From the NCBI RefSeq assembly GCF_025152575.1, contig NZ_CP102293.1, positions 1,860,001 to 1,924,000 of the forward strand: 64,000 nucleotides of DNA, in the 5' to 3' direction. Below the pieces are notes generated by a model that was not told the DNA's origin, made no database searches, and worked only from the letters and a program-made list of their open reading frames with translations. Positions 15,490-17,517 of the stretch are shown piece by piece; the first letter of the stretch is position 1; each line of letters begins with the position of its first letter. The translations under genes and the position numbers were made by a program. The DNA comes from Subdoligranulum variabile (lineage in GTDB: Bacteria; Bacillota; Clostridia; Oscillospirales; Ruminococcaceae).

Positions 15490-17517
15490 ATGAAACATAA
15501 AAGAATCGGACGGCTGCTGACGGTTTTTATTTCGCTGATGTTGGCAGCCTTTATCATGCCCACAACGGCGTTTGCCATGCAGGTCTTTGTGAAAAGACTG
15601 GCAGGGAAGCATATCACCCTGGAAGTGGAACCTACCGATCGCATTGAAGACGTGAAACAAAAAATCCAGGACAAAGAAGGCATCCCCCCCGAACGGCAGA
15701 GGTTGATTTTTGCGGGGAAAATCCTGGAGGATGGCAACACCCTGCAGGATTATTCCATTAGGAAAGACAGCACGATTTATCTTGTGCCGCTGGGGACCTA
15801 CGACGAAAATGGGTTTGAGATCACGGGGGCCGGGTACCAGCCTCCGGAGTTGGTGGACGGAGTCTATCAGGTCAAAAATGCCGGCAACCTCTTCTGGTTG
15901 GCACAGTGGGTAAACGAATGCGAGGAAAACCAGGGAGTCAACGTCTTGCTGACAGAGGACATCACCATCCCGGCGGACCGGACCTGGACGCCCATAGGAC
16001 TGGAGAAAGACGGCAAAAACAAGGCCTACACCGGCACCTTTGACGGGCAGGGACACACGATTCGGGGCCTTGTCACCGCCGGGCAGGAGGGCGGCCTGTT
16101 CTGGGCTGTGGGTGCGAACGGCACCGTAAAGAATCTCGGCCTGACCGAAGGAACCTTTACCGGCGGCGCCGGGAATTGTGTGGGCGCCATTGCCGGGCGC
16201 AGCAGCGGGACCATTGAAAATTGCTACAGCACCTGTACCGTCACAGGAGAAACCGGCTCCGCAGGCGGTATCTGCGGTACGGCCGAGGGAAGTGCGGTCC
16301 TCAAAAACTGCTACAACACCGGCTCCGTCACCGTCACCGGCTCCGGTACGGCCGGCGGCATCTGCGGCTCCGTTACGGCGGATGCCGTCCGGATTTCCGA
16401 TTGCTACAATACCGGCGCCCTTTCCGCTCCGGATGCTGTCCACGGCATTGCATGCTGTGCCGGCAATGTCAGTTATGATACCGTTGTGCAGGCGGACAGC
16501 TGCTTTTACCTGGCGGAACAGGAAGACGAGGCGGGAGGAAAAACCGCTGTGCAGTTTGCTTCCGGTTCGGTGGCCTGGCTGCTGCAGAAGGGCCGGACCG
16601 ACCTGGTCTGGGGACAGACAGTCGGGGTGGATCCTTTCCCCGTTTGCACAACGGATCCTTCCCGGAGGGTGATCCGCATCACCGTTCAGGATATGACCAA
16701 GGGGACCGGGACAACGGAGATCCTCTGGGCCAACGCCGGCAGGCCGGTGGGATTTGAAGCAAACTGCACGTACTATGAGGAGGAAGCCTGCACCACCGAA
16801 GTGCCGGATGACCGGACCTTTGACGGGGACACCACCCTCTATGCCATCCGGTGGGCGGCGGTGACAAAGGCGCCTGCGGCCAACCAGCTGACCTGCAACG
16901 GGCAGGCCCAGGAACTGGTGACGGCGGGCACCGCCACAGGCGGCACCCTGCAGTACAGCCTGCGCAAGGAGGGCGGCTACACCACCGCTATCCCCACCGG
17001 AACCGACGCCGGGACCTATACCGTATGGTACAAGGTGGCGGGGGATGATTCCCACCGGGATAGCCTGCCCGCCTGCGTTCAGGTGGTCATCCGGCAAGAG
17101 TCCGCTTCCTCTCAGCAGGAGGAAAACAACAGCAACAATACACCGACGGCCACCCCGGCTCCCACGGCGGCTCCCACGGCCACCCCGACGCCGGTCCCGG
17201 TGACCCAGCCCGCGGCGGGCAGTCCGCCGAAGGGCACGTCTATTTCCAAGACCACGGCTTCCCACAAAGGAACCGCCTCTCCGGTCCCCACGGCCGCCCC
17301 TGAACCGACAGCCTCTCCGGTGCCTGCCGGGACCCCGGCCGTCAGTGAATCCCAGACCCCGCCGCCCCGGCAGACGGAAACGGCAGAAACGGCTGAAGCC
17401 GCCGCGGCACAGCAGGACAGCGCATGGCCGTGGCCGGTTCCGGCCGCGGGGATCCTGGCCGTTGCTGCGGCAGCGGCTCTGGGATGGCGGGCCTTCCGGA
17501 AACGGCGTGAAAAATGA
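15490..17517 (+). CDS. Exported, membrane-anchored ubiquitin-domain protein with GLUG repeats
   Basis: 675 residues. Order: signal peptide (1-29, ending TTAFA), a domain at 30-99 that is almost eukaryotic ubiquitin, a GLUG-type repeat region (about 126-390, with repeated GGICG and NCYNTG blocks), a beta domain (about 455-535), a Thr/Pro/Ala stalk (540-640), a membrane helix (648-668) and a KRREK tail. I count 52 of 70 positions identical to human ubiquitin. All seven lysines are kept (K35, 40, 56, 58, 62, 77, 92), as are L8, I44 and V70 of the hydrophobic patch (H68 is Tyr). The LRLRGG tail is replaced by PLGTYD, so ordinary conjugation is impossible. GGGAGAGG precedes the ATG at 15490. The function is unknown; surface display of a ubiquitin mimic is inference. 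Confidence 0.9.
   Translation: MKHKRIGRLLTVFISLMLAAFIMPTTAFAMQVFVKRLAGKHITLEVEPTDRIEDVKQKIQDKEGIPPERQRLIFAGKILEDGNTLQDYSIRKDSTIYLVPLGTYDENGFEITGAGYQPPELVDGVYQVKNAGNLFWLAQWVNECEENQGVNVLLTEDITIPADRTWTPIGLEKDGKNKAYTGTFDGQGHTIRGLVTAGQEGGLFWAVGANGTVKNLGLTEGTFTGGAGNCVGAIAGRSSGTIENCYSTCTVTGETGSAGGICGTAEGSAVLKNCYNTGSVTVTGSGTAGGICGSVTADAVRISDCYNTGALSAPDAVHGIACCAGNVSYDTVVQADSCFYLAEQEDEAGGKTAVQFASGSVAWLLQKGRTDLVWGQTVGVDPFPVCTTDPSRRVIRITVQDMTKGTGTTEILWANAGRPVGFEANCTYYEEEACTTEVPDDRTFDGDTTLYAIRWAAVTKAPAANQLTCNGQAQELVTAGTATGGTLQYSLRKEGGYTTAIPTGTDAGTYTVWYKVAGDDSHRDSLPACVQVVIRQESASSQQEENNSNNTPTATPAPTAAPTATPTPVPVTQPAAGSPPKGTSISKTTASHKGTASPVPTAAPEPTASPVPAGTPAVSESQTPPPRQTETAETAEAAAAQQDSAWPWPVPAAGILAVAAAAALGWRAFRKRREK

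What the first reader, a model, noticed from the sequence alone, without database searches (positions are those of the whole stretch)
15490..17517. Bacterial surface protein carrying a near-eukaryotic ubiquitin domain
Seen directly: a signal peptide, then 70 residues of which I count 52 identical to human ubiquitin, with all seven lysines and most of the L8-I44-V70 patch kept, then GLUG repeats, a Pro/Thr stalk and a membrane helix. Known: bacteria normally lack ubiquitin; Bacteroides fragilis has an acquired, exported ubiquitin, so a precedent exists. Inference: a gut Firmicute displays a ubiquitin mimic on its surface, which could bind or inhibit host ubiquitin receptors, antagonise ubiquitin-like systems of protists, or raise or absorb antibodies to ubiquitin. 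The RLRGG tail is absent, so it cannot be conjugated; it could still accept ubiquitin on its lysines.
Basis: partly seen in the sequence, partly recalled or inferred. Interest (0 to 1): 0.93.

Follow-up and report, generated by a model that had tools for sequence, protein, structure and literature searches.

The report
Bacterial surface protein tipped with ubiquitin
A gut-type bacterium makes a surface protein whose outer tip is a ubiquitin domain of the kind found in trichomonad-like protists, one case of a widespread, little-described pattern in which bacteria export ubiquitin, probably as a docking ligand rather than a protein tag.

Summary
Confirmed and extended. ORF 15490-17517 encodes signal peptide, ubiquitin (52 of 70 identical to human; seven lysines and L8/I44/V70 kept), GLUG region, Ig-like domains, stalk and membrane helix, in a genome of one 3.24 Mb contig. 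The ubiquitin is closer (60 of 70) to a parabasalid (Trichomonas) type: all eight residues separating that type from human are present. It is not unique: of the 80 best matching loci in named prokaryote genomes, 65 put a signal-peptidase-like site directly before ubiquitin Met1. Passengers differ and partly specify surface attachment (autotransporter barrel, SLH, dockerin, T9SS tail, IPTL-CTERM). Positions 1-70 stay 91% human-like while the conjugating tail decays (Gly76 kept in 11 of 66); in 11 of 11 measurable pairs (passenger identity 0.5 or more) ubiquitin is more constrained than its passenger. I conclude: a surface-displayed, non-conjugatable ubiquitin, most likely a non-covalent ligand for eukaryotic ubiquitin-binding proteins. 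The partner is not shown. Antibacterial action like Bacteroides fragilis BfUbb and a passive cap remain open; in the window's own lineage the domain is little or no better kept than its passenger. New variant of a known kind.

The parts
15474..15481 (+). Shine-Dalgarno-like GGGAGAGG, 8 bases before the ATG
   Evidence: read from sequence
15490..15576 (+). signal peptide, residues 1-29, ending MPTTAFA directly before ubiquitin Met1
   Evidence: hydrophobic-stretch heuristic; SignalP not available
15577..15786 (+). ubiquitin domain, residues 30-99 = ubiquitin 1-70, parabasalid type; RLRGG tail lost
15841..16539 (+). beta-rich (solenoid-like, by my reading) domain with GLUG motifs, residues ~118-350
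16660..16869 (+). first Ig-like beta domain, residues ~391-460
   Evidence: fold assignment by inference from strand order
16873..17103 (+). second Ig-like beta domain, residues ~462-538
   Evidence: fold assignment by inference
17107..17445 (+). disordered Pro/Thr/Ala stalk, residues 540-652
   Evidence: pLDDT under 50 for 540-656
17446..17511 (+). C-terminal membrane helix with basic KRREK end; no LPXTG motif

Best explanation
The gene encodes a membrane-anchored surface protein whose mature N-terminus is a ubiquitin derived from a parabasalid-type protist. SHOWN by sequence: signal-peptide site directly before Met1, ubiquitin fold (model), loss of the RLRGG tail, GLUG/beta-domain/stalk/TM layout, parabasalid-type residues, and membership in a broad set of signal-peptide-ubiquitin proteins in which ubiquitin 1-70 is conserved while tail and passenger are not. 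INFERRED: the stalk holds ubiquitin outside the wall as a non-covalent ligand; its surface (L8-I44-V70 and neighbours) is bound by ubiquitin-recognising proteins of eukaryotic cells, most likely gut protists of the kind the domain came from, possibly also host cells or host antibodies; the outcome would be attachment or altered uptake and handling of the bacterium. It cannot be conjugated.
For: Anatomy. All 8 residues that separate P0208 (a Ub-L40 fusion whose best L40-fusion match in the PDB is 5xy3_m, Trichomonas vaginalis ribosome) from human Ub are present in the window. Ub tree: 14-row parabasalid-type group, support 94/86, holds the window lineage. 65 of 80 loci have the SP site directly before Met1. 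Many surface routes: autotransporter 11, SLH 6, Por tail 4, dockerin 4, IPTL-CTERM 4 of 71 proteins. Minimal SP-Ub-anchor proteins: P0198/P0219 (LPXTG-like), L079/L092/L099 (IPTL-CTERM). Positions 1-70 average 0.907 human identity, 71-76 0.578; G76 kept in 11 of 66, all of L8/I44/H68/V70 in 54 of 66. Ub omega .02-.16 against passenger .15-.57 in the 11 measurable of 13 pairs with passenger identity 0.50 or more, Ub lower in 11 of 11.
Against: No binding, expression or localisation data. In the window's own lineage the Ub domain is little or no better kept than the rest: P0242 66 of 70 against 94.8%; P0243 59 of 70 (84%) against 73.2%. The window's 10 changes from the parabasalid type include T7R, T9A, Q49I and H68Y, near the I44 patch (changes; placement recalled). 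Eukaryotic ubiquitin receptors are mostly cytosolic (general knowledge), so access needs uptake, lysis or a cell-surface receptor. CXCR4 as an extracellular receptor is disputed (PMC10892293, passages).
Confidence: 0.45

Rival explanations
1. It works like BfUbb: an antibacterial agent against related bacteria, presented on the surface for contact inhibition instead of being secreted.
For: BfUbb also has a signal peptide ending exactly at Met1, lacks GG, and as a synthetic 76-aa protein inhibits sensitive B. fragilis strains while bovine ubiquitin does not (PMC5705921: abstract, one results section, discussion). Six relatives are free ubiquitins behind a signal peptide (L021, L044, L071, L084, L090, L094). 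Patchy presence: 1 of 34 other genomes of the same genus has a ubiquitin-family match.
Against: The BfUbb target is unknown; no obvious immunity gene among the four annotated neighbours (small ORFs not examined); fused and anchored here; 54 of 66 sequences keep the whole human-like patch, whereas bovine ubiquitin, identical to human, is inactive in the BfUbb assay.
Confidence: 0.2
2. Passive cap: a very stable, protease-resistant beta-grasp module that protects or helps fold and export the N-terminus of surface proteins, without a ubiquitin partner.
For: In the 65 loci it sits at the mature N-terminus, on unrelated passengers; weak extra constraint in the window lineage.
Against: Patch, lysines and loops stay near core-level conservation (core 0.94, patch 0.89, unclassed positions 0.84) and omega is .02-.16; minimal SP-Ub-anchor proteins have nothing else to protect.
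Confidence: 0.2
3. Immune effect on the animal host: antigen that raises or absorbs anti-ubiquitin antibodies, or a tail-less CXCR4 ligand.
For: BfUbb is recognised by anti-ubiquitin antibodies and RA patients showed higher antibody responses to it (PMC11773492, passages); [quoted passage not shown]
Against: Some relatives are not from animals by name or title, e.g. L038 Methylolobus aquaticus, L077 ALOHA, L093 Aquiluna (habitats not counted); CXCR4 role disputed.
Confidence: 0.1
4. Assembly contamination or chance similarity.
For: Some matches in MAGs look eukaryotic, e.g. polyubiquitin L031.
Against: Single contig, 99.92% complete; bacterial signal peptide, Shine-Dalgarno-like site and passenger in one frame; full-length homologs P0242, P0243, P0246, P0247.
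Confidence: 0.01

Closest known systems
BfUbb, secreted ubiquitin of Bacteroides fragilis (PMC3352274, PMC5705921)
   Same: eukaryote-derived ubiquitin, signal peptide cleaved at Met1, no terminal GG, gut bacterium, patchy distribution
   Different: BfUbb is free and secreted, 63% identical to human and nearest by DNA to an entomopoxvirus gene; here fused to a long anchored passenger and of parabasalid type
Parabasalid (Trichomonas) ubiquitin, e.g. 5xy3_m and P0208-like Ub-L40
   Same: 8 of 8 type residues; 60 of 70 identical to P0208
   Different: cytosolic, conjugatable, ends RLRGG, fused to L40 or polyubiquitin
GLUG-motif surface proteins of Bacillota
   Same: beta-rich GLUG passenger; 1957 proteins match this part, 120 listed
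   Different: of the 7 best passenger relatives, which I read, 4 carry Ub with a signal peptide (P0242, P0243, P0246, P0247), P0244/P0245 a truncated Ub, P0248 none; of the other 113 listed none has the ubiquitin Pfam label
Bil / bacterial ISG15-like and Pup systems (recalled)
   Same: ubiquitin-like or functionally ubiquitin-like protein in bacteria
   Different: intracellular conjugation systems; no E2 match in the own genome (control genomes silent too, so inconclusive)

Membership tests
Ubiquitin family (PF00240) | sequence and beta-grasp fold of ubiquitin | tested here: met
   85.9 bits vs 25.4 cut-off; predicted fold 0.4-1.5 A from ubiquitins in the ten best hits
Conjugatable ubiquitin | C-terminal LRLRGG, exposed after processing | tested here: not met
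   residues after V70 read PLGTYD
Parabasalid-type ubiquitin | H12 T20 R22 D25 N54 Q57 S60 D64 | tested here: met
   8 of 8; tree group 94/86; in 5xy3_m only residues 55 onward were read (Q57, S60, D64)
BfUbb-like secreted ubiquitin | signal peptide directly before Met1 | tested here: met
   TTAFA|MQVF
BfUbb-like secreted ubiquitin | free ~76-aa mature protein | tested here: not met
   576 further residues after Ub residue 70
BfUbb-like secreted ubiquitin | inhibits sensitive strains | not testable with these tools
   needs a growth assay
Sortase-anchored (LPXTG) surface protein | LPXTG-like motif, helix, basic tail | tested here: not met
   helix and basic tail only; no LPXTG family hit at E up to 1
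Signal-peptide-ubiquitin surface proteins (set assembled here) | SP site with A/G/S at -1 directly before Ub Met1, diverse passenger | tested here: met
   AFA|M in window; 65 of 80 loci share it

The most novel reading that the evidence does not exclude
Displaying ubiquitin is a general, repeatedly invented bacterial strategy: bacteria of many phyla capture ubiquitin from local eukaryotes, cap it with a signal peptide cut exactly at Met1, hang it on whatever surface anchor they have, lose the conjugating tail, and can even swap in a fresh ubiquitin from another protist while keeping the passenger (window against P0246), to be recognised by ubiquitin-binding proteins of protists or animals.
Probability: 0.35. 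Interest if true: 0.95.

Novelty: new variant of a known kind. Interest (0 to 1): 0.8.

Why it matters
Ubiquitin was reported in bacteria as a unique oddity of B. fragilis (PMC3352274, title and passages). Here it appears as a recurrent exported module across phyla, under purifying selection where it could be measured, with a tail that mostly no longer conjugates, and in this gut lineage of protist type. That makes a clear question testable: what reads ubiquitin on the outside of a bacterium? Possible answers reach protist grazing, bacterial antagonism and anti-ubiquitin autoimmunity.

Tried and rejected
Contamination: rejected (single contig, homologs, single-frame fusion). Direct origin from an animal host: disfavoured, 52 of 70 to human against 60 of 70 to the parabasalid type. 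One bacterial origin for all: the best tree with the 87 bacterial and viral-contig rows as one clade is rejected (p-AU 7.3e-5), but the alignment has only 70 columns and the rows were chosen by similarity. Ub module swap between window and P0246: passenger tree joins them (100/100), Ub tree does not, but holding them together is not rejected (p-AU 0.083), so only suggestive.

Own ubiquitin-conjugating system: PF00179 gave nothing in the own genome, but its control genomes were silent too, so this shows nothing. Gene neighbourhood: LysR, MetE-like, M42 peptidase, RpiR give no functional hint; in two relatives of the same genus (G026, G034) about 6.4 kb lies between MetE and M42, in G026, by my reading of the translations, mostly transporter genes. 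First protein search with the Ub region was swamped by polyubiquitins. Paper searches in the held open-access library showed no paper on surface-anchored ubiquitin in bacteria, but I saw listings only, capped: 20 of 437 papers; 25 of 62; 'ubiquitin' with 'IPTL-CTERM': 0 papers; 13 listed of 15; 7 of 7; 15 of 19. Subscription papers and preprints were not searched. A phylum-wide prevalence search did not complete.

Rows dropped before counts: duplicates L010, L100, L101 and L142-L144; L010, L101 and L142-L144; L100, L101 and L142-L144 from the tree, where identical rows were also merged; six of 76 proteins (L094, L098, L099, L103, L104, L145) were not given to the Pfam tally.

Full report
THE OBSERVATION. 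The ORF 15490-17517 (+) is real: 675 aa, ATG start with a Shine-Dalgarno-like GGGAGAGG eight bases upstream. Residues 30-99 align without gaps to ubiquitin 1-70; 52 of 70 are identical to human, all seven lysines and L8, I44, V70 are kept, H68 is Tyr, and the tail after V70 reads PLGTYD instead of LRLRGG. Pfam ubiquitin scores 85.9 bits against a cut-off of 25.4, GLUG 24.5 against 20.5. The model (mean pLDDT 78.0; 23 sequences in the alignment) shows ubiquitin's strand-helix order at 30-100, a beta-rich stretch to about 341, two beta domains that I read as Ig-like, a disordered stalk 540-652 and a final helix 653-674. The ten best Foldseek hits in the PDB are ubiquitins or ubiquitin variants at 0.4-1.5 A. 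The window lies in a single 3,244,954-base contig, 99.92% complete, with one ubiquitin-family match.

ORIGIN OF THE DOMAIN. A search with the domain alone gave 2549 proteins among 2552 candidates, of which 120 are listed; I read 44 of those, the ones at 80% identity or more. These (80-87%) are mostly a distinct ubiquitin type. It differs from human ubiquitin at eight positions, T12H, S20T, T22R, N25D, R54N, S57Q, N60S and E64D, and the window has all eight; it matches this type (P0208) at 60 of 70. P0208 is a ubiquitin-L40 fusion from an unnamed metagenome. Its best L40-fusion match in the PDB is 5xy3_m at 241.7 bits, the next 195.7; 5XY3 is the Trichomonas vaginalis ribosome (PMC8860606, passage). 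For the window domain too, 5xy3_m scores 123 bits against 105-107 for human-type single ubiquitins, P0208 122.9. Of 5xy3_m I saw only residues 55 onward letter by letter; they carry Q57, S60 and D64. In a tree of 97 rows and only 70 columns, the window lineage falls in a 14-row parabasalid-type group (94/86) together with other signal-peptide ubiquitins; the label 'parabasalid' of its L40 and polyubiquitin rows is mine. One of these, P0193, has a signal peptide and a ubiquitin identical over 70 residues to P0208. The signal peptide and Ub of the window gene are GC-poor (0.47, 0.48; GC3 0.59, 0.60) beside neighbours with GC3 0.85-0.90, which fits foreign origin. Donor 'parabasalid' is an inference from these residues; no parabasalid genome was searched.

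IT IS NOT ALONE. By Pfam, ubiquitin is rare near home: over the cut-off in 2 of 61 relatives, 5 of 394 genomes of the order and 5 of 391 of the class, each count including the own genome. Of these 80 loci, 65 have a hydrophobic signal-peptide-like stretch and A, G or S at -1 directly before ubiquitin Met1; in their 66 reading frames -1 is A 54, G 8, S 4. The other 15 lack it by this rule; they include likely eukaryotic contamination (polyubiquitin L031) and three with a hydrophobic stretch but another -1 residue (L034, L080, L082). Of 21 loci from viral contigs, 7 pass the same rule (L094, L098-L101, L103, L104). The rule is my heuristic, not SignalP, and the 80 were ranked by similarity to ubiquitin, not by signal peptide. 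Several lie on long contigs of records not marked as MAG, e.g. L068 Saccharibacillus sacchari (6.08 Mb), L021 Dyella (1.33 Mb), L064 Cohnella (1.03 Mb), L019 Conexibacter (0.78 Mb), L092 Denitrificimonas (0.78 Mb); many others are short MAG contigs whose labels are weak.

DOWNSTREAM PARTS. Of 71 such proteins (P0001 and 70 of the 76 others collected), 11 match the autotransporter beta-domain, 6 SLH, 5 GLUG, 4 Por_Secre_tail, 4 dockerin, 4 IPTL-CTERM; for many the anchor is not identified. Minimal forms exist: signal peptide, ubiquitin and sorting tail only (L079, L092, L099 with IPTL-CTERM over its cut-off; P0219 LPXTG-like 16.4 against 15.9, P0198 just under at 15.2). Six are free ubiquitins (L021, L044, L071, L084, L090, L094), of which L021, L071, L084 and L094 end in an intact LRLRGG. 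A minimal SP-ubiquitin-anchor protein is hard to explain unless showing ubiquitin outside the cell is the point; this is inference.

SELECTION. Among 66 distinct sequences from the 80 loci, positions 1-70 are on average 0.907 human-identical and 71-76 0.578; G76 is kept in 11 of 66, all four of L8/I44/H68/V70 in 54 of 66, all seven lysines in 49 of 66. Among 77 distinct sequences (the 80 loci plus others) core positions average 0.94, the patch 0.89, unclassed positions 0.84. Positions that vary most in bacteria (such as 16, 19, 22, 24, 28, 57) also vary among the eukaryotic ubiquitins fetched (by eye), so recent capture contributes to the conservation. Of 13 pairs with passenger identity of 0.50 or more, 11 gave a usable Ub dS; in all 11 the Ub omega (.02-.16) is below the passenger's (.15-.57). 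The other two had none (L103/L104 zero, L026/L066 saturated). The 11 pairs are not independent: six come from four related loci. Recombination of Ub modules may also lower dN: in L035/L036, from one MAG, Ub dS is 0.26 and passenger dS 1.26.

RESULTS AGAINST MY READING. In the window's own lineage the domain is little or no better kept: P0242 66 of 70 in Ub against 94.8% in the rest; P0243 59 of 70 (84%) against 73.2%. P0243 differs from the window at L8 (to V), G35 and R42 too. P0244 (34 member sequences) and P0245 carry only the end of the domain and no signal peptide. So strict mimicry may be fading here, or the surface may be retuned: of ten changes from the parabasalid type, T7R, T9A, Q49I and H68Y lie near the I44 patch (placement recalled). 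P0246/P0247 share signal peptide and passenger with the window (57.1% and 55.6%) but carry a more human-like ubiquitin type (56 of 70 human, 44 of 70 window). The passenger tree joins them with the window, the Ub tree does not, but the test does not reject a joint clade (p 0.083). I read this as a probable module swap, not as shown.

MECHANISM. Shown: export signal, exact Met1 boundary, predicted fold, lost tail, membrane helix. Inferred: display on a stalk and non-covalent recognition by ubiquitin-binding proteins, with gut protists the likeliest partner because the domain is of their type, and because protists are eukaryotes that gut and water bacteria meet alike (some relatives are aquatic by name, e.g. 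L038, L077, L093; habitats not counted). The BfUbb precedent (PMC5705921: abstract, results section on the inhibitory factor, discussion) keeps an antibacterial role open; there bovine ubiquitin was inactive. PMC3352274 (abstract and passages) reports that BfUbb inhibits in vitro ubiquitination. Reviews (passages: PMC10892293; PMC11773492) report disputed CXCR4 binding of extracellular ubiquitin and antibody cross-reaction with BfUbb.

VERDICT. A surface ubiquitin of parabasalid type, one member of a widespread, convergent-looking class that I did not find described in the listings of the searched papers. New variant of a known kind (exported bacterial ubiquitin); interest 0.8.

Noticed in passing
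L099-L101; L100 1985-2431 with 3089-6167: Signal peptide-ubiquitin-IPTL-CTERM genes on three viral contigs; on L100, the one checked, the gene lies about 0.7 kb from phage terminase small and large subunit and portal genes: a phage or prophage seems to carry an exported ubiquitin.
   Followed up: partly
L079 5932-6321 and 4104-5420: A similar minimal ubiquitin gene lies near an ORF that reads like a tyrosine integrase in a MAG labelled Brevundimonas (integrase by eye).
   Followed up: no
L035 and L036: Two ubiquitin-bearing paralogs in one MAG share nearly the same ubiquitin DNA (dS 0.26) on diverged passengers (dS 1.26), as if the module were homogenised.
   Followed up: no
L057, L073, L087: Tandem ubiquitin-fusion ORFs without signal peptide in MAGs labelled Actinomycetota/Bifidobacterium; a second architecture or contamination.
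   Followed up: no
P0244, P0245: Homologs of the window protein lacking the signal peptide and most of the ubiquitin domain.
   Followed up: no
window 15240-17575 against L138 and L139: In two same-genus genomes the slot between the MetE-like and M42 genes holds about 6.4 kb; in G026 (L138), read by eye, mostly transporter genes instead of the ubiquitin gene.
   Followed up: partly
window 56989-60264: Glycosyl hydrolase family 3 protein whose C-terminal domain model (94-411) precedes the N-terminal one (771-858); the neighbour 60354-62825 has the usual order.
   Followed up: no
L107-L114: Eight viral contigs share a divergent ubiquitin (39% identity) with, by eye, an insertion near the N-terminus.
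   Followed up: no
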